This document shows, one piece after another, positions 14,349-30,592 of a DNA stretch of 64,000 nucleotides. A program made the position numbers and the translations under genes. This DNA comes from Streptomyces sp. NBC_01304 (lineage in GTDB: Bacteria; Actinomycetota; Actinomycetes; Streptomycetales; Streptomycetaceae). Location: contig NZ_CP109055.1 in assembly GCF_035975855.1 (NCBI RefSeq), forward strand, positions 1,550,001-1,614,000. The letters run 5' to 3'. The notes under the pieces are model-generated. The model made no database searches. It saw nothing but the letters and a program-made list of their open reading frames with translations, and was not told where the DNA came from. Within the stretch, counting starts at the first letter, position 1. Each line of letters opens with the position of its first letter.

Positions 14349-15203
14349 TCACAGCGATCCGAGCCCCTGGGCAATCGCCCGCCCGGTCTCCCGCGCCGTG
14401 AGATACGGCCGTACGTCATGCGCCTTGGCGCCATTGTGGATCCGGACATCCTTGACACGGTCCCCGAACCTCGAACCGAGCTCCTTCACCAGCGGGACCA
14501 CATCGCCCTTGTCAGCGACGTTGACCCAGCGTTTCACGGACGCGGGCCAGCGCCCGCGGCCGCCGGCGGGGGCCGGCACCAGCCGGTCGAAGACCAAGTT
14601 GCGTACACCCAGGGGGGATCCCAGGGAAACGAAGGTCAGGTCCTGCCACTCCGGATGGGCGCACAGGGCCTCGTAGGCGGCGACCGTACCCAGGGAATGG
14701 GCGACGATCACCTCGGTCTGCGGCGTGATGCCGCGCTCAACTCTCTCCCGGACCAAGGCCCTTACGTCGGGTTCGGTGAAGTAGAGGCGCACCTGCCTGG
14801 CGCTCCAGATGAGCAGTCGCTCGCTGAGCCCGGCGAAGAACGTGGAGTGGCTGAGCGCGTCGAGCGCGCGCTGCACGAGGTGCGGCGTCCGGAGCCGGGC
14901 GGGGGCGTCCGGGCCTGGCACCCGGGCCTCGATCTCGGCTGCGGCCCGCCACCACTCGATCAGCAGCTCGCGTTCCAGGTCGTCGTGGACGTCGGAGGCG
15001 TCCAGCTCCGGGATACCGAGCCCGCGGTGGCCCGCAGGCCGGAAGAGGTCCCCGTAGAAGGCCATCGACACCTCCTCGCCCGGGATTTGGAGGCCCCCGG
15101 CCCGGGCGATGCCGTCGCTCAGTGCCGGGCGCCAGTCGGCGAGGAGCGTTTCCGCGCCCAGGTACTGCTTGCCGATGCCGTGCACGAGCACCACCCGCGT
15201 CAT
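14349..15203 (-). CDS. Alpha/beta hydrolase coupled to the caspase/STAND gene
   Basis: The 284-aa protein is a serine alpha/beta hydrolase with no signal peptide, so it should act in the cytoplasm. It opens with MTRVVLVHGIGKQY, an oxyanion-hole HG motif. The nucleophile elbow is VIVAHSLGTVAAYEAL (Ser170), a likely acid is in NVADKGDVVPLV (Asp231 or Asp234), and the His is in AHDVRPYL (His262). The start ATG overlaps the stop of the caspase-like gene in ATGA, with GAGGAGG six bases upstream inside that gene. The two are therefore almost certainly made together. The substrate is unknown: lipid, peptide or ester are all possible. In this setting it could be an effector that the protease or NTPase controls. 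Confidence 0.85.
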   Translation of the reverse strand: MTRVVLVHGIGKQYLGAETLLADWRPALSDGIARAGGLQIPGEEVSMAFYGDLFRPAGHRGLGIPELDASDVHDDLERELLIEWWRAAAEIEARVPGPDAPARLRTPHLVQRALDALSHSTFFAGLSERLLIWSARQVRLYFTEPDVRALVRERVERGITPQTEVIVAHSLGTVAAYEALCAHPEWQDLTFVSLGSPLGVRNLVFDRLVPAPAGGRGRWPASVKRWVNVADKGDVVPLVKELGSRFGDRVKDVRIHNGAKAHDVRPYLTARETGRAIAQGLGSL

Positions 15204-18200
15204 GACGCACCTCCTCTGCCCTCGGGCTGCCGCTCGGGATAGAGGTGGAGCGTGACCACACCCATGTCGGTCGCGACGCAGACCCGACCGGCGCTGTCGG
15301 CGGAGATGCCTCGGATGGAGCTGCCGATGTCCAGCTCGGCTTTCCACGCGGGCGAATCGACCGTCCAGACCCGCATCAGTCCGTAGCGGTCGGCGGCCAC
15401 CAACGTGGGGGTGCCCGCGATGTCCACGAAACGAATGGCCCGGATCGCGGACGGGAAGGGCTCGAGCTCCACGCCGGCGTCGCTCCCGTCGTCGATGTTC
15501 CAGAAGCGCAAGGCGCCGTTGCCCGCACCGGTGATGATCATGTCGCGGTCGGTGCGGGCGAACTCCAAACCGTACGCCCCCATCTCATGGCCGCTGAGAG
15601 GCGACCCGACAGGAGCCCCGGTCCGCAGATCCCAGATCCGCACCGTGCCGTCCACCGAGGCGCTCGCCACGAGTTGGCGGCCACCGACGGTCGCGGCGCG
15701 CACCGTCATCACAACCGCGGTGTGCCCGGTCATCGGAGGGCACACCGGCGCCTGAGTGATCAGGTCCCAGGCGTGCAGGGAGTAGTCACCCGCGACGTTG
15801 ATCACCACCGTGCTGTCCCCGGTCGAGTGCACACAGGCCCGCCATGACGCCCCCGAGCGCTTACTGAGCCGAGTGCGGGACTCCAGGCTCCACACCTCTG
15901 TCTCGGCCCAACCGCTGCGCACGGTCACGCTGTCGCGATCCAGCGAGACGGTCGTCACGTCGTGGGCCACCTGCGCACCCGAAGTCAGATGGGCCGCCAC
16001 CTGGCGACCGTCCTCCAGGTCGTGGGTGCGCACGACCCCGTCGACGCCACCGGTGGCAACGACTTCCCTGCCGTCCCGGGTCCGCAGGATGTCGGCCGAC
16101 ACCAGGCTCTGTTCCGCCCCGCACAGCGGCTCCCCGACGGACCGCATGGTGGTGAGGTCCCAAACGCGCACTTCCCGCGAGGTGGCGACGGCTGCCACCG
16201 GCACCCCGTCGAGCTGCCCGAGGGCCGGCGCGGCCCGGTCGGCCAGCGTTCCCAATCGGGTGAAGCCCTCCATCGGGGGTCCCAGGGGCTCCGCCGATTC
16301 CAGGTCCCAGGCCCGCGCCGTGTCGTCAACGGCCATGGTGGCCACGAGGGTTCTGCGCCCGACGCGCGCGAGGGCACCCACCAGAACCAATTCGGCGTGG
16401 CCGGTCAGCGGCCCGGCAACCACCGTTCGGCTCTCCACGCCGTGCACGTACACGTTGTTGCCTTCGAGCACGGTCAGGACGACCGGCCGGGCCTCGTGGA
16501 ACGCCACTCCCACCGCCCGCGCCGAGGGGGTGAGATCCTCGACGTTGAAGTGAGCCTTGGGCTGCACCCGGCCAGGTGCGGTGCGGCTCTCGATGTGCCA
16601 GACGTACGCGTGATCCAGCGTGGTGGCCAGGACGATCTCCATGCCGTCGTGGACCTTGCGAACGGCAAGGTGCCGGATCCCGCCGATGTGCCCCACAAGC
16701 GGCCGGCCGACCGGCTCCCCGGTCAGGACGTCCCAGAGGCGGACGGTCCCGTCCTCGCCGCCACTGACCACGACCGGGGCGTCGCCCAACTCGCCGAAAG
16801 CGAGGCAACGTACCGCATTGGTATGCCCCCGCAGAGGCTGCCCGAGAGCCGCCTTCGCGAACGGATCCCACAGCCGGACCGTGGTGTCGGCCCCCGCCGT
16901 CGCCGCGACGGTCTTTCCGTGCACCGTGCCGAGCGCCACGGCGAGCACCTGCCCCGAATGCCCCTCCATCGGAGGGCAGACCTGGGTGTGTGTGCCGGGG
17001 TCCCACAGCCGAGCCGTTCCGTCCTCGCCGCCCGTGAGCACCAGTGACCGGCCCCGAACCGTCACCAGGGCCGTGGAACAGACGGGCCGGGCATGCCCCT
17101 CGACGGGCTGATCAGCCGTCAAGTCCCAGACACGTGCCGTTCGGTCCTGGCTGACGGTGACCGCCATCGAAGCATCCGCGCGGTCGGTGAGGGCCGCCGC
17201 CGTGATGTCCTCGACATGGCCGCGCAGCGGGTGTCCCAACTGCTGCAGGGTGCGCAGATCCCACAGGCGCGATTCCCTGCGCCCGCTGGTCAGTGCCACG
17301 GGCCGGCCGTTGAACTCGCCGACCACCGCGGACGCGACCCCGCTCCGGACGTAGTAGACGTGTGCCATGACCGGCTCGCCGATCTGCCGCCGCGACTCGA
17401 GATCCCAGCGGCTGAGCATGCCCGTACGATCGCCGACCAGCGCCACGGCCCGTCCGTCGAGCCGTGCCGCGCACACCGCGGTGACCGCCTCCGCCGGCCC
17501 GACGAGCGGGCTGCCGTGGACGCGCGCGTCCCCGCCCTCGAGCACCTCGCTCAGGTCCCAGACGTAAACGGACTTGTCGTCGCCGCCCGTGATGGCGATG
17601 GGACGCCCGTCCAACTCGCCCAGATCGGCGTCCCATACGGTGCGCCGGTGGGCGCTGAGGTCGGCGCCCAACTGCTGCCTCGTGACCAGGTCCCAGACAC
17701 GGGCCGTCCCGTCAGCGCTGGCGGTCAGTACCACCGGATGACCGCCGATGGCGCCCACCACGATGCTCTCGACCTGATTGGTGTGCCCCGTGAGCGGCGG
17801 GCCGTGCTCCTGACCCGCCGAGAGGTCCCAGATCCGAACGGTGCCGTCTTGACCTCCGGTGAGCGCGACGGTGTAGTCCCCGAGGTCCCCGATGGCGATG
17901 GCGCTCACGGCGATGTCCACCGGGAGCGGATCTCCGATCTGCCGCTGCGACGTCAGGTCCCAGACGCGGGCCGTCCCGTCGAAGCTCCCGGTCACCGCGA
18001 TCGGGCGACCGTCGAGATCACCGACGGCCACACAGCCGATCGTCTTCGCGTGGGCGCTGAGGAGACGATGCACACCACTCGTGGACCACCAGGCCCACTT
18101 CGCCGACCAGGGCAGTGCGACGCCAAGCTCCTCGATCCGGTCGGCCAGCCGGTCGGCCTCACAGCGGCGGGCCGAGAGCTGAAGGTCGGCCGCCCGCTCG

Positions 18201-20446
18201 CCGATCGGGCGATCGGCCGTCAGACGATGTGCCACCTGCTCGTACGATCCGCGGATGCGGCGCGGCTCCTCGCCCTCGATGGACGAGAACGCGCGCAACA
18301 GGGACAGTGGTTCACCGGCCAGCAGAAACCCGGGGTCCTCGATGAGGCCGGCGAGCAGGCCCGCCGCTGCGGCATGCGTGGCCAGGTGTTGACGCACATA
18401 GGGCACCGCCGCGAACCACTCCAGGCGGCCGTCCGGCGAGATGGGGACCAGCGAGCGGAGCGCCTCCACGACCGAGCCCTGGATGTCTTCGGGAGGACGG
18501 TCCGCAGTGGCGCGCAGATGCTCGGCGAGAGCCTTGTGGTACAGCCGGTAGACCGAGCGGTGGTCGTCGTCGATGACTTCGGCGATGTACGCCTCGGCCA
18601 CGTCCAGGACCCAGGTGACGTCCTCCTCCGTGCAGGCCTGGCCGGAGATGACCGAGCTCAGCGCCGTCCAGACCCTGCCTCGCGGCAGACCCTTTCCCTC
18701 CGAGAAGGCCAGGGCGAGCAGCATCCGGCGCACGCGTGGTTCATCGGGGCCGAAGCGCGCGAGATAGTCGTCGAACGCCTCACCGACCTCACTCGGCAAC
18801 TTGTCGGCCCACCCGGGGCTGTTGACGTCGACGGCCGCCCGGTCCGAGCGCAGGGTGCGGGCCGTCGTGCGCGCGTAGAGGTAGACGCCGGCGGCCTTCT
18901 CCCCGACACCCCTGGCGACCATCGCGGCCAGCTCGGGGCGGTCTCGGTAGGGGGTGCGTACGTCGGCCTCTTCAGAAGCGAGGAGCACCCGGGTGACATA
19001 GCCCGCGACGTCATCATCACCTGCCCGGTATCCGGCCCGGTCCAGGTCGATGACGGTGAAGGTGGGGCCGAGCGGTGCGACCAGCTCATGGCGGGTCCCC
19101 ACCAGGAGCCGGACCCCGGGTATCTCGGACATGGGGCGAAGCAGTTCCCGGGTGATCCGGCGGGGCTCCCCATGTCCACCCGCGTCCGCGGCGGTGTCCG
19201 ATCCCGCCTCGTCGACGGCGTCCACCACGATGACCGAGGTGTGCCCGAGCCGCCCCCTCCTGGTGAGTTCCTGCAGGAGCGCTGCCGCGCCGTCCGCTTC
19301 CGTGCCCAGTGCCGTGGCGATCCGCACGACCACCTCCTCGAGCCGCTTGTGCCGCGCGTGCACCGCGGCGGTGACGCAGCCTTCGGGGACCACGGTGTCC
19401 GGGTCGACGCTCAAGAGGTCGAACTTCGATCGATAGCGCCCGTCCGACAGGGCGACGATCCTGCCCAGAACCGCCGACTTCCCACAGCCCGGACTACCGG
19501 TGACAACACGTCCCCGGCCGTCCTCGTCCGCCGTCTCGGCCGTCAGCCAGCCGACCAGCTCGGACAGCACCCGTACCCGTCCACTGAAGTACAGGCCCTG
19601 CTCCGACTCGAACTCGACTCCTCGCGAGCGCGGACCGAAGTGCTCCGTGAGGTCCCGGGCGGCCACACGGCGCTGCACCTCGAGGTCCGAACCGATGGGC
19701 GGCAGCCCTTCCTGGTAGCCGGAGTTGGGCAGGAAGGGGGCGAGCCCGGTGACCAGGCCACTGGCCAGCTCGGCCCGCTGCCCCCGGCTGTCGGCCTCGA
19801 AGCGTTCGTTGATCGCCTTCACCAGTTCGGTGAGGTCGAGGAACTCCTGTCGTTGCCCGGTACGCCCGGTCGTCGTGTGCACCGCATCGGTGAGAGCGGT
19901 GACGAAGGCGCCGTCCTCGGCGATGTCCTTCCGGCGTGCGGCAGCTAGGAACCACAGCCCCGACGACGCCACCGTGCCCGCGTTGCGGTAGGCGATCGAC
20001 TGCAGCGCCACAGCGGAGGCCTCGGCGCTGCCCGCCCCGCCGGAGCAGGTGTCCAGGACCAACAGCAAGTGCCGCAGCCTGCCCCGGCACAGAATCCGCA
20101 GCAGGTCCTCGGTGGCCAGGGCCGTGGTCGCCAGGTCCTCGTCCTGCGAGTCCCAGCAGAGCAGATAGTGCCGGTCCCGCTCCTCGACCACGCCATGCCC
20201 GGCGAAGTAGACGACCACCACGTCGTCGGCCGTCAACTCGGCATCCGCCGACCAGTGCCGCAGCTTCTGCCGGATCTGCTCGGCTCCGTCGTACTCACCC
20301 AGGCCCGGGAGTACGGTCTGGTACCCGAAGGACTTGAACAGCTCGGTCATCGTGCGGACATCACGCGGCACGGATCCCAGTTGTGCGTCCGCGGGAAGGT
20401 GCCGGTACCGACCGCTCCCCAGCGCAACGAAGAATCGTCGCCCCAC
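15200..20446 (-). CDS. Caspase-like / STAND NTPase / WD40 protein
   Basis: This 1748-aa protein has three parts. Residues 1-240 form a caspase-fold (peptidase C14) domain with the dyad His84 in YFAGHG and Cys134 in LDTCSGG. Residues about 280-640 form a STAND/NACHT-type NTPase: an entry motif YFSGRVRVLSELVGWL, Walker A GSPGCGKS (317-324) and Walker B VIVVDAVDEA (405-414). A helical region follows, then about 21 WD40 repeats to the C terminus (for example DGTARVWDL and DGTVRIWDL), enough for three seven-bladed propellers. In known relatives the propeller senses, the NTPase oligomerises and the caspase cuts a target. The GTG at 20446 (VGRRFFVALG) gives the domain a natural N terminus; an ATG at 20521 or 20614 would add residues of poor coding quality. 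It is coupled to the downstream hydrolase. Confidence 0.9.
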   Translation of the reverse strand: MGRRFFVALGSGRYRHLPADAQLGSVPRDVRTMTELFKSFGYQTVLPGLGEYDGAEQIRQKLRHWSADAELTADDVVVVYFAGHGVVEERDRHYLLCWDSQDEDLATTALATEDLLRILCRGRLRHLLLVLDTCSGGAGSAEASAVALQSIAYRNAGTVASSGLWFLAAARRKDIAEDGAFVTALTDAVHTTTGRTGQRQEFLDLTELVKAINERFEADSRGQRAELASGLVTGLAPFLPNSGYQEGLPPIGSDLEVQRRVAARDLTEHFGPRSRGVEFESEQGLYFSGRVRVLSELVGWLTAETADEDGRGRVVTGSPGCGKSAVLGRIVALSDGRYRSKFDLLSVDPDTVVPEGCVTAAVHARHKRLEEVVVRIATALGTEADGAAALLQELTRRGRLGHTSVIVVDAVDEAGSDTAADAGGHGEPRRITRELLRPMSEIPGVRLLVGTRHELVAPLGPTFTVIDLDRAGYRAGDDDVAGYVTRVLLASEEADVRTPYRDRPELAAMVARGVGEKAAGVYLYARTTARTLRSDRAAVDVNSPGWADKLPSEVGEAFDDYLARFGPDEPRVRRMLLALAFSEGKGLPRGRVWTALSSVISGQACTEEDVTWVLDVAEAYIAEVIDDDHRSVYRLYHKALAEHLRATADRPPEDIQGSVVEALRSLVPISPDGRLEWFAAVPYVRQHLATHAAAAGLLAGLIEDPGFLLAGEPLSLLRAFSSIEGEEPRRIRGSYEQVAHRLTADRPIGERAADLQLSARRCEADRLADRIEELGVALPWSAKWAWWSTSGVHRLLSAHAKTIGCVAVGDLDGRPIAVTGSFDGTARVWDLTSQRQIGDPLPVDIAVSAIAIGDLGDYTVALTGGQDGTVRIWDLSAGQEHGPPLTGHTNQVESIVVGAIGGHPVVLTASADGTARVWDLVTRQQLGADLSAHRRTVWDADLGELDGRPIAITGGDDKSVYVWDLSEVLEGGDARVHGSPLVGPAEAVTAVCAARLDGRAVALVGDRTGMLSRWDLESRRQIGEPVMAHVYYVRSGVASAVVGEFNGRPVALTSGRRESRLWDLRTLQQLGHPLRGHVEDITAAALTDRADASMAVTVSQDRTARVWDLTADQPVEGHARPVCSTALVTVRGRSLVLTGGEDGTARLWDPGTHTQVCPPMEGHSGQVLAVALGTVHGKTVAATAGADTTVRLWDPFAKAALGQPLRGHTNAVRCLAFGELGDAPVVVSGGEDGTVRLWDVLTGEPVGRPLVGHIGGIRHLAVRKVHDGMEIVLATTLDHAYVWHIESRTAPGRVQPKAHFNVEDLTPSARAVGVAFHEARPVVLTVLEGNNVYVHGVESRTVVAGPLTGHAELVLVGALARVGRRTLVATMAVDDTARAWDLESAEPLGPPMEGFTRLGTLADRAAPALGQLDGVPVAAVATSREVRVWDLTTMRSVGEPLCGAEQSLVSADILRTRDGREVVATGGVDGVVRTHDLEDGRQVAAHLTSGAQVAHDVTTVSLDRDSVTVRSGWAETEVWSLESRTRLSKRSGASWRACVHSTGDSTVVINVAGDYSLHAWDLITQAPVCPPMTGHTAVVMTVRAATVGGRQLVASASVDGTVRIWDLRTGAPVGSPLSGHEMGAYGLEFARTDRDMIITGAGNGALRFWNIDDGSDAGVELEPFPSAIRAIRFVDIAGTPTLVAADRYGLMRVWTVDSPAWKAELDIGSSIRGISADSAGRVCVATDMGVVTLHLYPERQPEGRGGAS

Positions 20447-20680: not shown

Positions 20681-22324
20681 TCACCGCCCGCTGTCGTCGA
20701 CCGGACTGCGGCGATACCCCTTCAGCCAGTCGACAAGGCGCTCCTCCGGGTCGTCACGGAGGACGAGCCCGCACAGGTGGTCCGCCGGGGCGCAGGCATG
20801 GCCGGACATCGCGTCCGGGTCGTCGGGGTCGTCGGGGTCGAAGTCTTCGTCGTCATCGTCGAGTTCGTCCTCCTCCAGGTCCGGCTCGACGACCGTCGGC
20901 GCACCGTAGAAAGAGTCGGGTTCGGGATCGGGGGCGAATGTCCAGCGGGCGCCGCAGTGGACGACCTGCACCTCCCCGAAGTACCAGGACGCGCCGAGCA
21001 GGAACGGATCCTCCGGCGTGGCCTTCATCTCCTCGTACGTGGCGAACTTCTCCCGCACCACGGCCTGCAGGCGGTCCAGGCTCGCGGGTGAGAAGTCCCA
21101 GTCGGCGGTGGACCCGCCGGCCTGCCCGACCCAGTCGGCGAAGGACGCGCGGCGTGCGTCCAGCCAGGCGGTCAGGCGCGGGTTGTCGTGCCAGTCGGGG
21201 TCCTTGAGGTCCGGGTCTGCCGCCAATTCCCGGTGCTCCTCGGCCAGTTGCTCCCGCTCCTCGTCGGTCAGGGGCGCCGGCAGATGCTCCGGGGCGACGA
21301 GCGGCCACAAGGCCCTGGGCCAGGGTTCATCGGTGGCCCCGTCGGGCACGACCGCGGGCGCCGGGTCCGGGAAGCGGTCCACGACCGCGCGCAGGGTCTC
21401 GCCTTCGAGCACGGCGCGCAGCATCTGCGTGGGATGCTCGGCATGGCCGCCGTACCGCATCCGCTGGTCGACGAAGACGGTGTCGGTCCAGTACGAGTCC
21501 GCCGCGTACCAAGTCCCGGGCGGGGCCTCGGGGTTGGACTTGCGGAACTGCCAGGCGGCGTCCTTCCTGCGGACCACGTACTCGGCGGCGTACCAGGCCG
21601 CCTGGACCCAGAAGGGTTCGCCCGCGACCTTGTCGTACTGCTCGACCGTCCCCAGGCGCTCGCGCAGCAGAGCCTCCAGGGCGTCGAGCGACGCGGGCCC
21701 GAAGTCCCAGCGCTCCCGGCCGCCGCCCGCCCCGTCGGCCCACCAGGTCAGGTAGTCGTGGAAGCGTTCGTTCGGCCAGTACTTCCACAACGCGCCGACC
21801 TCGTCCAACTCACCGAAGCGCACCCATGGTGTGCGCACCCGCTCGGGCCTCCACCCGGGGTGCGCCGCCTTGTGCCGGACGACCGCCCGGCGCAGACGCA
21901 GGGCGACCGTGGCGAAGACGTTCTGCGTCTTCTCGTAGACGGCCTGCCCCACCAGCAGAATCGGCACGACGGTCTCGAGGCCGAGCTCCGGATCGGGCTC
22001 GACGGCGGGCAGACCCACGGATCCCGCACTCTCGTCCCACACCCAGCGCCCGCCCCCTTCCGCGAGCAGCACTTCACCCAGATATCCCGCCAGGGCTTCC
22101 ATGTACAGGGCGGTCGAGTCCTGACCGTCATCGGTCCCGTAGAGGGTCGCCAGATCCTCCTCCAAGAGCCTCAGGGAGCCGATCGAGTAGTCGTGGTCCC
22201 AGCCGTCTGCGGTGAACTGGGCGAGGAGCAGGTCCATCCGCTGGTGCAGCGACTCGATCCATATGTACAGGGCATGGGCGGGGGTGCCCACCGGGGCGTC
22301 CTTGCCCGCGAGATACGCGTCCAT
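20681..22324 (-). CDS. Uncharacterised protein with three internal repeats
   Basis: I do not recognise this 547-aa protein. It contains three related units of about 60-70 residues. Two are clear: DFGPASLDALEALLRE followed by AAWYAAEYVV, and DFSPASLDRLQAVVRE followed by ASWYFGEVQVV. A more divergent one near the N terminus reads DYSIGSLRLLEEDL, then YLGEVLLAEGGGRWVWD. Each runs from a SLxxLE-type helix to a W/Y-rich strand. The C-terminal part has a strongly acidic tract rich in Asp and Glu. A GTG at 22423 with GGAG upstream would add 33 residues. It lies 234 bases upstream of the caspase/STAND gene in the same direction and could share its transcript. Confidence 0.7.
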   Translation of the reverse strand: MDAYLAGKDAPVGTPAHALYIWIESLHQRMDLLLAQFTADGWDHDYSIGSLRLLEEDLATLYGTDDGQDSTALYMEALAGYLGEVLLAEGGGRWVWDESAGSVGLPAVEPDPELGLETVVPILLVGQAVYEKTQNVFATVALRLRRAVVRHKAAHPGWRPERVRTPWVRFGELDEVGALWKYWPNERFHDYLTWWADGAGGGRERWDFGPASLDALEALLRERLGTVEQYDKVAGEPFWVQAAWYAAEYVVRRKDAAWQFRKSNPEAPPGTWYAADSYWTDTVFVDQRMRYGGHAEHPTQMLRAVLEGETLRAVVDRFPDPAPAVVPDGATDEPWPRALWPLVAPEHLPAPLTDEEREQLAEEHRELAADPDLKDPDWHDNPRLTAWLDARRASFADWVGQAGGSTADWDFSPASLDRLQAVVREKFATYEEMKATPEDPFLLGASWYFGEVQVVHCGARWTFAPDPEPDSFYGAPTVVEPDLEEDELDDDDEDFDPDDPDDPDAMSGHACAPADHLCGLVLRDDPEERLVDWLKGYRRSPVDDSGR

Positions 22325-22485
22325 GGGGTTCGAACGTAGGGCATGGCACTGACAGTTGGGCCGCCGAGGAGGCCTCCCGCCGGGGTCATCTCGGGGATCT
22401 TCACGTTCCGCCACATCCTTCACCTTCGCTCCATACGATCAACATCGGCCTCCAGGGGGAGGCTTCGCACGATCTGGAGGGGAAC

Positions 22486-23812: not shown

Positions 23813-26641
23813 TTACTTTGGTCCGGCCTTCAGGCACAGCTTCCGGTAAGCGGGGCCGGCAGGTACATAAGCGCGCCACCGGTCGGCGGTGAATGCACCG
23901 CTTGCCCACACGCACAGCGAGTGCACCGGATCCACCGTCGCGTTGACATCCCATAGCCGCACCGTACTGTCGCCGCTCCAGCTGATAATCCTCTTGCCGT
24001 CAAGGCCGAAGGCCACACCGGTGACGCCGGCGCCGTGCCCTTCGAGCGGCACGCCGATCTGCCGCCGGGAAGCGACGTCCCAGAGCCTGACCGTCCCATC
24101 CATACTGCCGGTGCCCAGCGTTTTCCCATTGGGGCTGAACGTTACGGAGTACACACCGCTGCGATGGCCCGTCAGTGATTCCCCGATCTGTTTACGCGTG
24201 GCCACGCTCCAGAGCCGAACGGTGTTGTCGCGGCTCGCGGTGGCGAAGACCGTGCCGTCCGGACTGAAGGCGATATCGCTGATCTGCGCGGTGTGGCTGG
24301 GGCGAGTCTCGCCGATACGGTGACGTGTGGCGGTGTCCCAGAGCACCACTGTGTTGTCCGCGGTGCTGGTGGCGAAGGTGCGGCTGTCAGGGCTGAACTC
24401 GAGGTTCCATCCCTCGGCATGGATTGGCGTGCCTATCTGACGCTGTGTTGCCGGATTCCACATACGCAGGGAGTCCTCGCCGGAACTGATGAGAGTCTTG
24501 CCATCGGGGCTGAAATCCAAGGCGAATATGTCGCCGGTGTGGCCGGGCATGGACTTGCCGATCTGACGGCGCGTTCTGACGTCCCAGAGTTTCACACGGG
24601 GTCTTGTCTCGCCCGAGTCGGTGGCAAGCACAGTGCTGTCGGGGCTGAAGGAGATCGCGGGGCTCAAGTCCAGCACACTGTGCTCCAGCGGAGCACCGAT
24701 CTCGCGCCGTGCGGCAACGTCCCAGAAGCGCACGCCGGTGTCGGAGTCGGTTGCAGCCAAGGTTCGGCCATTTGGACTGAGCGCCGTCGAACCGCTGCTC
24801 CCGGTATTGATCGATGGTCCGATCTGCCGTTGTGCGCGGACATCCCACAACCGAACTGTGGTGTCCTCACTCGCACTTGCCAGGGTCGATCCGTCCGGGC
24901 TGAAAGCCACAGACCGGACCGTACTCGTATGACCGGTGAAGGGCGGTCCCATCCGGCTGTGCCGAGAGACGTGCCAGAGGTGCACGCTGCCGTCCTCGTG
25001 GGAGGCGGCGAACATCGCGCCATCGGGGCTGAATTCCACCGAGTCGACCGGCCCGGCGTAGGAGTTGAACGGCTTCCCGACCGGCCTTCCAGTGGAGGCG
25101 TCCCAGATACGGACGCTGCCGTCGGCATGGGCGGAGGCGATGGTCGTGCCGTCTCTGTTGAAGGAGACCGATGAGACGCTGTCGTTCGGTGTCCCCAGTG
25201 CCTTGCCAAGCGGTACATGGGAGTTGACGTCCCAGAGCCGTAGGCCGTCTGTGCCTCCGGCGGCCAAGGCCTTGCCGTCGGGGCTGAAGGCCACTGCGTA
25301 GACAGCGGTGATACGCCCTCCGAGCGGCTTGCCGATCTGGCGATGTGTCGCCACGTCCCACATCCGTACGGCCGCCCCGGAGTCGCTCTCGCCACCGGCG
25401 GCGAGAATCCTGCCATCAGGGCTGAAGGCGACCGAATAGAGCATCCCGGACCGGGGGCGGAACGCGTCACCGATCTGTGTGCGCTCGGCGATGTCCCAGA
25501 GCCGGACAGTTCCGTCGAAACTTGAGCTGGCCAAGGTCTTGCCGTCTGGTCCGAAGGCCACTGATGTGACGCCTCGGTTGTGCCCGATGAACGAGTCACC
25601 GATCTTCTGCTGCTTAGCCGCATCCCAGAGGCGCACGATGCCGTCGTCGCTGCCGGAGGCAATTGTCTTGCCGTCCGGGCTGAAGGCCACCGATCTCATG
25701 GGCCAGGAATGCGCGAGCAACCCGGTCTCCGGGTTGACGGCTGCGTTGAGAACTGCGAGGCGGGATTCCGGAGTTGGATCGATCCGCCATGCCGCCAACG
25801 CTTTCAATCGGGCGCCGAAGGGGTCACGGGTAGCGAGGAAGGAACTCTGACTGATCAACTGCTGTGCGACGGCATGGTCACGCTGGCGGGTGGCCTCAGC
25901 GCGTTGGACCAGCGCGATTACTGACACCGTACTGGTGATCAGGAGGAGCAAACCCAATATGGCCGCGATGATCCTGGCGGTTCGCAGGTTGCGCCTCGTG
26001 TCGCGCACACCCTCCGACTTCAGGTCATCCTCGGGAAGGCCGCGTAGAACGGACGCGATGCCAACCGCAACGCTGTCGACATCCGGCAGCAGATCCGTGC
26101 CGTTGTCGGGGCGGCGCAGGTCGACGGATTTCCAGACCGGTTGCTGCTCGAAACGTCCGAACAAGCGAGTAGGGAGCGCTGTCGAGAGCTCCGAATTCCA
26201 GTCGCACTGCTGCTCGTCCCACACCAACCGTCCGGCGGACACAACGAGCAGGATATTGTCGACCGACCTGTGTTTCAGCCACCATTCGATTTCCCGGTCG
26301 ACCCATTCCGATTCTTTCGACTCCGGCGACGCCATGACGACGAGCCATTCGGAGCGCGCAAGGCCAGCCTCGATCTTTCCCCAGAGCTGCGGACCGATCG
26401 ATATACCACTGCCATCGAGGAATACTCTGATGCGAGGCGGCTTGTACCAGGGACGGGACTGCTTTTCGATGGCCCGCTGCAGGTGCGGCAGCCATTGTCG
26501 GTCGCGATCCCCACTGTAGGAGAGAAAGGCGCCGTACCCGAGTTCGGCTCTTATCCGCCTACCGGGGGCTATGCGTGTCCGCAACCGGTTGAACGTCAGG
26601 CCGAGTCTCCGAAGCCACGAGGGAAACCGACTCCGCGTCAT
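23813..26641 (-). CDS. TIR - transmembrane - WD40 protein
   Basis: The 942-aa protein has a TIR domain at about residues 35-145 (GAFLSYSGDRDR, IRVFLDGSGISIGPQLW, WLVVMASPESKESEWVDREI). A single membrane helix lies at about 223-245, and 14 WD40 repeats run from about 308 to 925, such as VRSVAFSPDGSTLASASED. Fourteen repeats would make two seven-bladed propellers. TIR domains in bacteria often cleave NAD+ or act in assembly; whether this one keeps the catalytic Glu cannot be settled by eye. The start ATG overlaps the stop of the upstream lipoprotein gene in ATGA, so the two are coupled. Base composition is visibly lower in G/C than in the flanking genes, a sign of transfer. It lies within the direct-repeat-flanked segment. 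Confidence 0.9.
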   Translation of the reverse strand: MTRSRFPSWLRRLGLTFNRLRTRIAPGRRIRAELGYGAFLSYSGDRDRQWLPHLQRAIEKQSRPWYKPPRIRVFLDGSGISIGPQLWGKIEAGLARSEWLVVMASPESKESEWVDREIEWWLKHRSVDNILLVVSAGRLVWDEQQCDWNSELSTALPTRLFGRFEQQPVWKSVDLRRPDNGTDLLPDVDSVAVGIASVLRGLPEDDLKSEGVRDTRRNLRTARIIAAILGLLLLITSTVSVIALVQRAEATRQRDHAVAQQLISQSSFLATRDPFGARLKALAAWRIDPTPESRLAVLNAAVNPETGLLAHSWPMRSVAFSPDGKTIASGSDDGIVRLWDAAKQQKIGDSFIGHNRGVTSVAFGPDGKTLASSSFDGTVRLWDIAERTQIGDAFRPRSGMLYSVAFSPDGRILAAGGESDSGAAVRMWDVATHRQIGKPLGGRITAVYAVAFSPDGKALAAGGTDGLRLWDVNSHVPLGKALGTPNDSVSSVSFNRDGTTIASAHADGSVRIWDASTGRPVGKPFNSYAGPVDSVEFSPDGAMFAASHEDGSVHLWHVSRHSRMGPPFTGHTSTVRSVAFSPDGSTLASASEDTTVRLWDVRAQRQIGPSINTGSSGSTALSPNGRTLAATDSDTGVRFWDVAARREIGAPLEHSVLDLSPAISFSPDSTVLATDSGETRPRVKLWDVRTRRQIGKSMPGHTGDIFALDFSPDGKTLISSGEDSLRMWNPATQRQIGTPIHAEGWNLEFSPDSRTFATSTADNTVVLWDTATRHRIGETRPSHTAQISDIAFSPDGTVFATASRDNTVRLWSVATRKQIGESLTGHRSGVYSVTFSPNGKTLGTGSMDGTVRLWDVASRRQIGVPLEGHGAGVTGVAFGLDGKRIISWSGDSTVRLWDVNATVDPVHSLCVWASGAFTADRWRAYVPAGPAYRKLCLKAGPK

Positions 26642-27339
26642 GCCGTCGGCAGGTATTCGTGACCGTTCCAGTGCAGCGTGACGTTCGAAGTGGCGCCCTC
26701 GGCGCAGCTGGGGTCGCAGTTGTTGTTGGACTTGACTATCGCGTACCGACCGTCTCCGCCGGGACCGACGAGTCGCGCATCATAATAGGCTAGCCTCCCG
26801 CCACGATAGTGATCGTCCGGACTTTCCCAGGCAATGTCCTCGAACCCGCCTTTTTCAGGCACGAGAACCAGCACCCCGTCATAGCGGCCCGGGTTGTAGA
26901 TCACGAAGGTGTTTTTGGTGGTGTCGGATGCAGGATCCGCGAAACGCAGTGCGTTTTCGCCGATGTTCACGTCAATGTCCACGCCGATGGCTTCCAGCGC
27001 GCGACCGCTGCCCGTGACGGCTGCGATGCACCCGTTGGGAGTGCTTGAATCGGTCCGCCGGATCAGGAATACGCGGACCGCTCCGAGGTTTGGGTGCTTG
27101 ATGTCCCGATGATCGAGCACTTCACCTGGGCACTTCGCGGAATCTGGTGGACTGGATGGAAACGAAGCGGGTGACGGAGTTTCCGTTGACGAATCGGGCA
27201 ACCTGCTCGCACCTTCTGTACACCCGCTGGCCAATACCAAAAGGAGAGCCGAGGCCAGCACCGCCATGCGGGCCTTGAGCGACCCGCATATGCACTCTGA
27301 AAGCTGCCGACGTAACGCCCCGGAAGTACTGACAGGCAT
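26638..27339 (-). CDS. Lipoprotein coupled to the TIR-WD40 gene
   Basis: The 233-aa precursor has a lipoprotein signal ending LLLVLASGC (Cys40), followed by a Ser/Thr/Pro-rich linker and a domain of about 170 residues. I do not recognise the domain. It includes GAVRVFLIRRTDSSTPNG, FVIYNPGRYDGVLVLVPE and, near the end, TLHWNGHEYLPTA, with a Cys pair in NNNCDPSCAEG. Many actinomycete surface lipoproteins end in a similar strand. ATG at 27339 has AGGGGG seven bases upstream. Its stop overlaps the start of the TIR-TM-WD40 gene by four bases. That makes it the likely external partner of a membrane-anchored intracellular TIR protein. Confidence 0.78.
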   Translation of the reverse strand: MPVSTSGALRRQLSECICGSLKARMAVLASALLLVLASGCTEGASRLPDSSTETPSPASFPSSPPDSAKCPGEVLDHRDIKHPNLGAVRVFLIRRTDSSTPNGCIAAVTGSGRALEAIGVDIDVNIGENALRFADPASDTTKNTFVIYNPGRYDGVLVLVPEKGGFEDIAWESPDDHYRGGRLAYYDARLVGPGGDGRYAIVKSNNNCDPSCAEGATSNVTLHWNGHEYLPTA

Positions 27340-27489
27340 GGAATTCCCCCTGCGCCAAACGAGTCCGATCCAGTGGACAGCAACGCGGGATTCTACCCAG
27401 GTGGATGTGACGTAAGGGAGGGCTTCCATCAAATCCAGCCACAGGAGGCTCATCCGCCACCCTAGGGCTCGGGGCCATCCGCATCGCGC

Positions 27490-30387
27490 TCAGCGGCAGG
27501 GCGCCTCCACATCCAGGCCCTCCAGGTAACGGTCCCGTTCCCGGCTGGGTAGAGGCTGGCCGACCAGACCGCACAGCAGGTCCCGCCACGCCTCCACGCC
27601 GACCGTGCGGCGGACGACCTTGCGGTCCGGGCCGAGGGTGAGGATGTCGTCGGCGGGGCCGGGAACCACCTGCACGCCGGCGTCGGGCTTCGTGGAGCCG
27701 ACCGGTGGATCCGTGCGCCAGACGTCGAGCTGGTCGCCTGTGGCCGCGTCCAGGATGCGCACACCCTGGTCGGTCTTAGTGCTGAAGCCCTGCAACAGCA
27801 GACTGCCGTCCCTGCTGAATGCCACGTCATGGGTATCGCGCGGTAGGTGCCCAGTGGCACGCACACGCTGTCCGGAGTCGAGGCGTACGACGTACACGTG
27901 ACTCTCCTCGTCAGCGAAGGCCGCCTGGTTCCCCTCGTGGTCGACTCCGATGCCAACGGGCTGGGCCTCACCCGGCAGGGTGGTGTGGACGGCGCGCTCG
28001 AAGGCGTGGTCGCCGTCCCAGCGCCAGATGTCGACGTCGTTGCTGGTCTGGTCGAGAACAACCAGGGACTTACGGTCGCCGCTCAGGGCGATGGCGAGGG
28101 AGCCGTACTTCGGCTCCGGCATCACCGTGCTGCGGGTGCAGGCCCTCGTGTCGAGCACTTCCACGGCGCCGTTCCAGAAGCCGACCACGTACCGGTCGCC
28201 CGGGAGGAAGTAGACCGCGGGGCGAACCCGATCCCCGTAGGCACTATTGATGGCCACGCCGCAGCCCGTCCGTTTCCCGGTTCGCAGATCCCAGATGTCG
28301 AAGCGCCCCTTGTCCTCAGCACCGCGCCGCACACTCTGCATGCCGACATACCGCTTGTCTCCGCTGAGTGCGTAAGCAGTGTCCTCCAGGTTCACGGACA
28401 GGTTGGCGTACGGAATCTCGCCGAGCCGGCGGCCGGTGCGCGGATCCCGGAACTCGGTGTGCCCCTCGGTCCGGCGCACTGCCATTCGTCCGTCGGGGGT
28501 CAGTTCCCCGTAGGTGAACTCTCCGACGCCAAGGGGGATTTGCTGCCCCCGCCGGACTCCTGTGGTGAAGAGATTGAACTCGCCGCCATACGAGGCGACG
28601 GCCACCTGGGCGCCGTCGGCCGACATGGCAAGGGTGTTGGCCGTCCGTGCCAGCCGGCCCAGTGTCGTTCCGGGCCGCAGCGTGGCGTCGTAGAGCCGGA
28701 CCTCACCGTGCTGCCCGCCCACCACGAAGTTCCCCTCGCCGTCGGCGACCGCCATGTCCTGGTGCACACCCAAGGACCGTGCGGCGATGCGGCGGCGGCG
28801 TTCCAGGTCCCACACCTCGGCGCGCTCCTCGGTCCTGGCCAGGGCCTTGCCCGCCCCGTCGAAAAGCAGGACCTCGCTGTACTTCCAGGGGTCCGAGGTG
28901 TCGCCGGTCATTCCGGGCAGGGACCTGGCGGCCGCCCAACTCGCCGATTCCGTCCGGAACTCCCGGACCTGCTGACGCCCGCTGTCGACCAGGGTCATAC
29001 GGGAGCCGTCCCGGGAAAACCCGAGCCCGAGCCGGGCCCTGCTCACCCGAAGCCGGGTGACCTCGCGGCCGTCGGACGCACGCCACACGACTACGAATGC
29101 CTTGAGCTCGGGGGTGACATGCGAGGCCGCGACCCACCGTCCGTCGGGCGAGAGAGCAAGGCTCGAGAGCCCGTGCGCGGCATTGGGCAGGTCCTCCGTG
29201 TGCCCCGCAGCCATCGTGCGCAGGAGCTTGCCAGTCCGGGTGTCCCACAGCTGGACCCGGTTGAGGTAGACCTCCGTGGCCAGGACGCGGCCGTCCCGGC
29301 TCAGCGCTCTGGGTTTGCCATCGGCGCGCAGTACGCGCGACTGCCGGGCAGATCGCACGTCGTAGAGGCGTACGCGTCGGGTCTGATCGAAGTCGGAGAG
29401 GTAGGCGGCGGTCGAACCGTCCGCGCTGAGGACGACGTCCGTGGCGGCTGGCCTGCCCGCGCCTTCGTATCCCGTCACCGAATCGGCATCCGCGCGCAGG
29501 CGCCGCTTGGCGTACGGCGCGGCGGCCACGGCTTGGGCCAGGGCACGCCGGGACTCGGGCGTGGACCGGGTCTCCTCGGCGTAGAGGGCGTACTGCGCAG
29601 CCTGGTTGGGACTGGTCGCGAGCAGTTGTCCGGAGCGGGCGGCCAGTGCCTGTGACGCGGAGATGCGAGCCTGTGCCACGGCCTCGTCACGCTGCCTGCC
29701 CGCGTCGAAGAAGCCGTATACCGCGAGGACGAGCAGCGCCATGAGCAGGGCGACGCCCGACCAGCTGAGCCGTTTGACCAACCGGAGTTGCCTGAAGTCG
29801 TCGTGCTCCAGCTCTTCCTTGGGACGGCCGTGCAACGGCGCGGCGAGGGTGGCAACCGCGGCGCGGAACGGTGGGTACCGCAGCGAGTGGTGGCCTCGTT
29901 CCTCGATCTCGCGGAGGTCCACCCAGAGCGGCATGGACGTGAAGTGGCCCGCCAGGTTCCGTGGCAGACATGTGGTCTTCTGCCAGTCGAAGTCGCCGGC
30001 CCTGTCGTCCCATGCGATCTCACCACTCGCCACGGCGATGAGCAGGTGCTCGGCGTCACGCTCGCGCAGCCAGTAGTCGACTTCCCTGGCCACCCACGGC
30101 GAAGCAGCGGCCTCTGGGGAGGCGAGCAGGATGAGATGGCGGGAGCGTGCCAGTTCGCGCTGGATCGACTTCCACAGGTCGTGGTTTGCGGACAGGCCGG
30201 TGACGTCGCGGAACACGCTCATCCGCATGGGCCGGAAGCGCGAGACGGCCAGCCGCTCCAGGCCTCGCTGGAGCTGTTTCGCAAGCGGCCTGTTCTTGCT
30301 CTGGCTGTACGAGATGAAGGCATCGCGCTGTTTCACGCTGTCCGACGCCGCGGCTCGCACCTCAGCCTCATCTACGGCATCACTCAT
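27490..30387 (-). CDS. Second TIR - transmembrane - propeller protein
   Basis: The 965-aa protein has a TIR domain at about residues 20-130 (DAFISYSQSKNRPLAK, SVFRDVTGLSANHDLW, LILLASPEAAASPWVAREV). A membrane helix lies at about 209-227 (SGVALLMALLVLAVYGFF), followed by a long, degenerate WD40-like propeller region with units such as LALSPDGRWVAASHV and VQLWDTRTGKLLRT. It has the same plan as the 23813-26641 protein but its repeats are much more divergent, so it is not a recent copy. ATG at 30387 is preceded by GGGGGA; a GTG at 30414 would add nine residues. It is divergent from the two-TM protein gene. Confidence 0.87.
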   Translation of the reverse strand: MSDAVDEAEVRAAASDSVKQRDAFISYSQSKNRPLAKQLQRGLERLAVSRFRPMRMSVFRDVTGLSANHDLWKSIQRELARSRHLILLASPEAAASPWVAREVDYWLRERDAEHLLIAVASGEIAWDDRAGDFDWQKTTCLPRNLAGHFTSMPLWVDLREIEERGHHSLRYPPFRAAVATLAAPLHGRPKEELEHDDFRQLRLVKRLSWSGVALLMALLVLAVYGFFDAGRQRDEAVAQARISASQALAARSGQLLATSPNQAAQYALYAEETRSTPESRRALAQAVAAAPYAKRRLRADADSVTGYEGAGRPAATDVVLSADGSTAAYLSDFDQTRRVRLYDVRSARQSRVLRADGKPRALSRDGRVLATEVYLNRVQLWDTRTGKLLRTMAAGHTEDLPNAAHGLSSLALSPDGRWVAASHVTPELKAFVVVWRASDGREVTRLRVSRARLGLGFSRDGSRMTLVDSGRQQVREFRTESASWAAARSLPGMTGDTSDPWKYSEVLLFDGAGKALARTEERAEVWDLERRRRIAARSLGVHQDMAVADGEGNFVVGGQHGEVRLYDATLRPGTTLGRLARTANTLAMSADGAQVAVASYGGEFNLFTTGVRRGQQIPLGVGEFTYGELTPDGRMAVRRTEGHTEFRDPRTGRRLGEIPYANLSVNLEDTAYALSGDKRYVGMQSVRRGAEDKGRFDIWDLRTGKRTGCGVAINSAYGDRVRPAVYFLPGDRYVVGFWNGAVEVLDTRACTRSTVMPEPKYGSLAIALSGDRKSLVVLDQTSNDVDIWRWDGDHAFERAVHTTLPGEAQPVGIGVDHEGNQAAFADEESHVYVVRLDSGQRVRATGHLPRDTHDVAFSRDGSLLLQGFSTKTDQGVRILDAATGDQLDVWRTDPPVGSTKPDAGVQVVPGPADDILTLGPDRKVVRRTVGVEAWRDLLCGLVGQPLPSRERDRYLEGLDVEAPCR

Positions 30388-30592
30388 GGCGTCCCCCGTC
30401 TCCCTTCCCTGCACTCAAGCCGTTCCCGGCGCACCACACCAACTTCCTTACTTAACATGCCTGTTGGTCCGGCTCGGCGCGACTCCGCTCTGGCGCTCTG
30501 CGTCCAGATGATCAAAGATTGTTCGAGTGTCGGGGCCAACTACTCTCTTCGCCGCCGTGACGCTATTTTCTTTTCACCTGTACACGTGACGC

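What the first reader, a model, noticed from the sequence alone, without database searches (positions are those of the whole stretch)
14349..20446. Caspase-like/STAND/WD40 protein coupled to an alpha/beta hydrolase
Seen: the protease has an intact His84-Cys134 dyad and the NTPase intact Walker motifs, followed by about 21 WD40 repeats. Its stop overlaps the hydrolase start in ATGA, with a GAGGAGG ribosome site inside the protease gene, and the hydrolase keeps Ser170 and His262. Known: effector-STAND-WD40 proteins are predicted bacterial conflict systems in which sensing triggers oligomerisation and effector activation. Inference: the hydrolase is the downstream effector or the protein the caspase cuts, giving a two-gene death or defence module.
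Basis: partly seen in the sequence, partly recalled or inferred. Interest (0 to 1): 0.82.

Follow-up and report, generated by a model that had tools for sequence, protein, structure and literature searches.

The report
Caspase-NLR paired with lipase-like hydrolase
Next to a bacterial gene that joins a caspase-like protease to an infection-sensor-type switch sits a small enzyme built like a lipase, and the two stay together across distant bacteria, which suggests that they form one protease-plus-lipase self-destruct or defence unit.

Summary
In detail: window 15200-20446(-) encodes caspase (H84/C134), STAND NTPase and about 21 WD40 repeats; 14349-15203(-) encodes a 284-aa alpha/beta hydrolase (S170/D234/H262), overlapping by ATGA. 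The hydrolase lies beside a caspase gene at 35 of 38 contig loci, 22 of 23 loci in 101 same-genus genomes (sets overlap), 4 of 8 further phylum loci and 21 of 24 opened plasmid loci. Gene order flipped at least four times. Conversely, 13 of 20 caspase/STAND-type loci carry it; two carry an LCAT-family hydrolase instead. Near-tied fold matches are phospholipases, lipases and esterases; the caspase resembles MALT1. Kaur et al. 2020 already reported caspase-alpha/beta-hydrolase pairing in VMAP systems, where this family also occurs. So: a STAND-WD40 variant of a known pairing. Likely mechanism: sensing, oligomerisation, caspase activation, then switching on a lipid hydrolase. Coupling is shown comparatively; cleavage, substrate and defence are inferred.

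The parts
15200..20446 (-). Gene A: caspase-like (C14) + STAND NTPase + about 21 WD40 repeats, 1748 aa
19724..20446 (-). [not shown]
20195..20197 (-). Catalytic His84; H in 57 of 57 alignable rows (59 rows, 2 gaps)
20045..20053 (-). Asp132 - Thr - Cys134: catalytic Cys and the Asp two residues before it (C 58 of 58, D 58 of 58 alignable rows)
18077..19639 (-). STAND NTPase region (about residues 270-790); Walker A 19475-19498, Walker B 19211-19234
15203..18049 (-). WD40 region, about 21 blades (three 7-blade propellers inferred)
15210..15216 (-). GAGGAGG ribosome-binding site for gene B, inside gene A
15200..15203 (-). ATGA stop/start overlap of genes A and B; 4-bp overlap also at 19 of 20 related contig loci with this gene order
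14349..15203 (-). Gene B: alpha/beta hydrolase, 284 aa; no Pfam family reaches its cut-off; AF2 pLDDT 92.6; near-tied best fold matches are phospholipases, lipases and esterases
14694..14696 (-). Nucleophile Ser170 (AHSLG elbow)
14502..14504 (-). Asp234, invariant, likely catalytic acid
14418..14420 (-). Catalytic His262, invariant
14883..14918 (-). Lid loop (residues 96-107) with candidate basic cleavage residues R103/R105 (inference)

Best explanation
A two-gene NLR-like module. The WD40 propellers of gene A hold or sense a ligand; the STAND NTPase then oligomerises and brings the N-terminal caspase domains together; the activated caspase, probably cutting after Arg/Lys, switches on the co-encoded alpha/beta hydrolase (by cutting or displacing its lid loop, or releasing it), and the hydrolase attacks membrane lipids, killing or arresting the cell. 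Shown here: architecture, intact catalytic residues in both enzymes, tight evolutionary coupling of caspase and hydrolase across several scaffolds, lipase-like fold. Inferred: the trigger, oligomerisation, Arg/Lys specificity, cleavage of the hydrolase, lipid substrate, death or defence outcome.
Confidence: 0.45

Rival explanations
1. The hydrolase is switched on by docking to the assembled caspase-STAND complex, not by cleavage; caspase and lipase are parallel effectors of one sensor.
For: No universal cut site; protease and hydrolase occur fused in one chain with trypsin or CHAT domains, which suits co-assembly as well as cleavage; AF2 puts the hydrolase in a compact, confident fold with only short loops of lower confidence.
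Against: The catalytic dyad of the caspase is kept in all alignable rows of L009-L071 and the window, so a purely scaffolding caspase is unlikely; fusions do not show whether cleavage occurs.
Confidence: 0.25
2. The caspase is the killer and the hydrolase is a regulator, for example removing an acyl group from gene A or the sensed target, or licensing or restraining the caspase.
Against: An LCAT-family enzyme stands in its place at two loci, which fits an interchangeable effector better than a specific regulator; catalytic residues are conserved, so it is no simple inhibitor.
Confidence: 0.15
3. The module serves development, signalling or kin recognition in mycelial bacteria, not defence.
For: Many hosts here are filamentous; conflict systems of this type are enriched in multicellular bacteria (PMC7159879, passages).
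Against: Patchy presence (20 of 101 genomes of the genus), several different neighbourhoods although subsets of loci share one, copies on plasmids near recombinases, integrases or transposases, and presence in Sinorhizobium and Hymenobacter.
Confidence: 0.12
4. Accidental neighbours in an operon.
For: None found.
Against: Adjacency kept through at least four order flips and across phyla.
Confidence: 0.01

Closest known systems
Caspase + alpha/beta-hydrolase pairing in VMAP (vWA-MoxR) ternary conflict systems (Kaur et al. 2020, PMC7159879; passages read)
   Same: N-terminal caspase plus a separate neighbouring alpha/beta-hydrolase gene; the hydrolase family of the window stands beside VMAP-M2 proteins at L075, L105, L107, L109, L111; the last four carry the caspase H and DTC motifs by direct reading.
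   Different: In the window the caspase is fused to STAND and WD40, without VMAP; no MoxR or vWA among the ten neighbouring frames tested.
Metacaspase-NACHT-WD40 proteins (Asplund-Samuelsson et al. 2012, PMC3501461; section 8 and passages read)
   Same: Architecture of gene A; described there as widely distributed.
   Different: In what I read there, operon partners are surveyed only in general terms ('different hydrolysases'); this pairing is not described in those parts.
Protease-activated pro-nuclease pairs and canu (Tuck et al. 2025, PMC12799240; passages and outline read)
   Same: A protease attached to varied immune scaffolds, a separately encoded enzyme next door, joint inheritance, a MALT1-like caspase in canu.
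   Different: The partner there is an MBL-fold nuclease; here an alpha/beta hydrolase. Activation by cleavage is shown there, not here.
EACC1-caspase two-gene systems (PMC7159879, passages)
   Same: Two-gene caspase system common in Actinomycetota.
   Different: NCBIfam NF047832 76.8 bits, cut-off 140; the gene 5' of A matches no Pfam family (EACC1 not tested by a model of its own); the partner here is an enzyme.
Antiviral STAND (Avs) and bacterial NACHT proteins; CARD-NLR systems with gasdermin or phospholipase effectors (PMC13236601, passages; Wein et al. 2025 not held)
   Same: Sensor-STAND-effector logic; protease plus membrane-attacking effector.
   Different: No CARD or gasdermin was recognised here; phage defence untested.

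Membership tests
Peptidase C14 (caspase) | C14 profile match with His-Cys dyad | tested here: met
   [not shown]
STAND NTPase with C-terminal sensor (Avs-like architecture) | N-terminal effector, central P-loop with Walker A/B, C-terminal repeats | tested here: met
   Walker motifs read; nSTAND1/NACHT/AAA_16 hits are below their cut-offs; WD40 strong
STAND NTPase with C-terminal sensor (Avs-like architecture) | Phage-triggered protection | not testable with these tools
   needs phage assays
Alpha/beta-hydrolase superfamily | Nucleophile elbow with Ser, acid, His and the fold | tested here: met
   [not shown]
Alpha/beta-hydrolase superfamily | Lipid or phospholipid substrate (lipase/phospholipase) | not testable with these tools
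   fold similarity only
VMAP ternary system | VMAP middle/C-terminal domains in the caspase protein | tested here: not met
   no VMAP domain among the ten Pfam hits to residues 1-820 (E up to 0.1) or the best 25 of 43 shown for the whole protein
VMAP ternary system | Adjacent MoxR ATPase and vWA genes | tested here: not met
   none among ten neighbouring frames scanned; the rest of the window was not scanned
VMAP ternary system | Caspase with neighbouring alpha/beta-hydrolase gene | tested here: met
   same hydrolase family beside VMAP-M2 elsewhere
EACC1-caspase system | EACC1-associated caspase type (NF047832 above cut-off) | tested here: not met
   76.8 bits, cut-off 140
Canu / nuclease-protease pairs | Partner is an MBL-fold nuclease | tested here: not met
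   partner has the alpha/beta-hydrolase fold
Canu / nuclease-protease pairs | Partner is a pro-enzyme activated by cleavage of an active-site loop | tested here: inconclusive
   lid loop with R103/R105 is a candidate only

The most novel reading that the evidence does not exclude
Caspase plus alpha/beta hydrolase is a portable protease-gated lipase cassette: a pro-phospholipase unlocked by its partner protease, shared by STAND-WD40, STAND-TPR, VMAP and compact caspase systems (and CHAT or trypsin variants). It would be a further class of protease-activated bacterial death effector beside gasdermins and pro-nucleases, with LCAT-type enzymes as interchangeable payloads.
Probability: 0.38. Interest if true: 0.85.

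Novelty: new variant of a known kind. Interest (0 to 1): 0.62.

Why it matters
Caspases in bacteria are common, but the targets of most are unknown to me. A partner gene that stays with the caspase through scaffold changes, order flips and phylum boundaries names a candidate target directly. If the partner is a protease-gated phospholipase, it would parallel caspase-to-gasdermin death in animals with an enzyme in place of a pore, and would explain the caspase-hydrolase pairing noted in 2020, for which the papers found here report no experiment.

Tried and rejected
Considered and rejected: accidental adjacency; VMAP or EACC1 membership of the window copy; canu membership (partner fold); a dead protease or hydrolase; phage-borne origin (no match in 50,697 phage records).

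Led nowhere or weak: Pfam, NCBIfam and PADLOC gave no family for gene B (best Pfam E 0.028, below cut-off); sequence search of solved structures gave nothing convincing for gene B (best E 0.098) and nothing up to 0.1 for gene A residues 1-820. The K/R count in the lid loop (76 of 85) is not above composition by my estimate; only R/K103 (57 of 60) and R105 (50 of 60) stand out, beside T106 and P107, which are at least as conserved. One search scored at most 10 candidates per genome, at most 24 and at most 12, so misses are likely. A Cyanobacteria-wide genome search was not possible. STAND and WD40 parts of gene A were not folded or searched alone; the fold list for gene A is filled by its caspase domain, and NLR-type folds are not among the 50 rows shown, which says nothing either way. 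The CHAT-like gene at L101 was recognised by eye only. Paper searches for this pairing outside VMAP listed nothing that I recognised as describing it; I saw titles and abstract starts of the listings and passages of eight fetched papers. Most subscription journals and bioRxiv are not held.

These repeats mean that the 38-locus set and the 101-genome set overlap by at least three loci. L061 (genes on opposite strands) was left out of the order count. One search prints AB for L040 and L045 because their open frames begin early; by the aligned starts both are hydrolase-first, and I counted them so. Two rows (L036, L041) were left out of the entropy but not of the residue counts. 8 of 32 plasmid records were not opened.
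Full report
WHAT IS THERE. The window lies in an unnamed 11-Mb genome; the named closest relatives of gene B's protein are almost all Streptomyces, so I take the genus to be Streptomyces. Gene A (15200-20446, minus strand, 1748 aa from GTG 20446) has a caspase domain, a STAND-type NTPase and a long WD40 region; gene B (14349-15203, minus, 284 aa) is an alpha/beta hydrolase whose ATG overlaps the stop of A in ATGA, with GAGGAGG at 15210-15216. Both active sites are complete: H84/C134 in A; S170/D234/H262 in B. No Pfam, NCBIfam or PADLOC family fits B; the nearest NCBIfam caspase model (EACC1-associated type) stays well below its cut-off for A.

IS THE PAIR MORE THAN CHANCE? A genome-contig scan with B gave 38 loci. 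A caspase gene is adjacent at 35: 20 in the window's order (A then B), of which 19 keep the 4-bp overlap, and 15 in the reverse order. Of the other three, L022 is cut by its contig end after a WD40 frame that overlaps B by 4 bp, L042 holds broken pieces of both genes, and L046 has only a 49-residue hydrolase remnant. The scan was seeded with B and finds close relatives only, so I also searched 101 genomes of the genus, own included. Hydrolase at E<=1e-20: 24 rows, 23 loci, 20 genomes; 22 loci sit beside a caspase gene (L061 on opposite strands) and the 23rd, L047 in the window's own genome, is fused to a CHAT protease domain. In the other direction, A residues 2-804 at E<=1e-40 gave 21 rows, 20 loci, 17 genomes: 13 with B beside them, 2 with an LCAT-family alpha/beta hydrolase instead (L055, L056), 2 without a caspase hit (L057, L058), 3 with caspase and no hydrolase seen (L052, L053, L054). 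L053 ends in a GT4-conflict domain. In the own genome, three other caspase genes (L049-L051) show no such hydrolase in stretches of 10-12 kb, while a second caspase-STAND-WD40 plus hydrolase set lies at L048, there with gene A in two overlapping frames.

HOW FAR IT REACHES. Of 198 genomes of the phylum searched with a hydrolase profile, 10 had a match; 8 new loci were opened: caspase adjacent at 4 (L072; L075 with VMAP-M2 and TPR; L076; L077), fusion to a trypsin-like protease at 2 (L073, L078), neither at 2 (L074, L079). Of 32 plasmid records with a match, 24 were opened: caspase adjacent at 21, including compact caspase proteins in Sinorhizobium and Hymenobacter, STAND forms in Actinomycetota, a caspase protein in Leptolyngbya, and four VMAP-M2 operons (L105, L107, L109, L111) whose N-termini carry the caspase H and DTC motifs by direct reading; a CHAT protein at L110 with a 4-bp overlap; a CHAT-like gene by eye, divergent, at L101; no partner at L099. 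In L090 and L095 caspase and hydrolase lie on opposite strands. For L096 and L108 the caspase label is the record's own annotation (for L096 the H and C motifs were also read); for L107 and L109 it rests on the motifs. 8 records were not opened. No phage record matched. Among close relatives the pairing is thus near-constant; among distant ones it loosens.

CO-INHERITANCE. For 57 pairs, hydrolase and caspase trees give distance matrices with r 0.84 (0 of 2000 label permutations as high, highest 0.43), and gene order needs at least 4 changes on either tree (quick trees with several weak forks and long branches). Adjacency that survives reordering points to function, not only to shared transcription. 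Co-transfer as a unit explains the correlation as well as physical interaction would.

HOW IT MOST LIKELY WORKS. Sensor engagement, STAND oligomerisation, caspase activation by proximity, activation of the hydrolase, membrane attack. [quoted passage not shown] A possible cut site is the lid loop 96-107: R/K at 103 in 57 of 60 and R at 105 in 50 of 60 close relatives (column entropy 0.82 against 1.9-2.8 for residues 99-102 and 104), in the 10-residue block of lowest model confidence, 101-110, mean pLDDT 74. Against it, T106 and P107 are at least as conserved, and seven caspase partners in the wider set of 85 have no basic residue there. I give cleavage about 0.4 and the whole chain 0.45.

WHAT IS KNOWN. 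Kaur et al. [quoted passage not shown] Asplund-Samuelsson et al. 2012 describe metacaspase-NACHT-WD40 proteins as widely distributed (PMC3501461, section 8 and passages). So both halves are known kinds; their union in a two-gene STAND-WD40 module, its reversible gene order, the LCAT replacement and the trypsin and CHAT fusions were not found in the papers searched. CARD-NLR systems are said to use phospholipases in place of gasdermins (PMC13236601, passages). Verdict: new variant of a known kind, with an unusually clear and testable protease-effector hypothesis.

Noticed in passing
window 23813-30414 (-): Two genes that look like N-terminal TIR-type domain, a hydrophobic segment and WD40/propeller C-terminus (942 and 974 aa), with a 271-aa unknown protein between them that overlaps the next gene by 4 bp. 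Pfam TIR_2 7.9e-9 for the 974-aa protein; for the 942-aa one the TIR-like N-terminus is by eye and the WD40 by Pfam.
   Followed up: partly
G000:C1:9650700-9655800 (L047 6762-11732): 1255-aa protein joining a hydrolase-like N-terminus with the nucleophile Ser changed to Gly, a ParA/MinD-type NTPase, Rho_N and a C-terminal CHAT protease; the next gene encodes a hydrolase-like protein with intact AHSLGG. Looks like the same pairing with CHAT and an inactive built-in hydrolase copy.
   Followed up: partly
L048 5539-11297 (-), L065 2988-9078 (+), L066 773-6707 (+), L091 5753-10239 (+): In these relatives the caspase-STAND part and the STAND-end/WD40 part lie in two overlapping frames, broken at about the same place of the STAND profile (390 of 542); at L065 the hydrolase gene stands between the two parts, and at L091 the record annotates two genes with a 4-bp overlap. 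A natural split of gene A is possible.
   Followed up: no
L073 1794-3860 (+), L078 6014-8158 (-): Hydrolase of this family fused behind a trypsin-like protease domain (Trypsin_2, about 6e-22).
   Followed up: partly
L094 402-989 (-): A further caspase-profile hit (8e-17) on this Hymenobacter plasmid locus falls in a gene annotated DEAD/DEAH box helicase, near the caspase-hydrolase pair.
   Followed up: no
L052 and L054: Caspase-STAND genes without a hydrolase, both beside an acyl-CoA-dehydrogenase-like gene (by eye), with a long C-terminus that matches no Pfam family up to E 0.01.
   Followed up: no
window 20681-22423 (-): 580-aa protein just upstream of gene A with no Pfam or PADLOC match up to E 0.01.
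   Followed up: no
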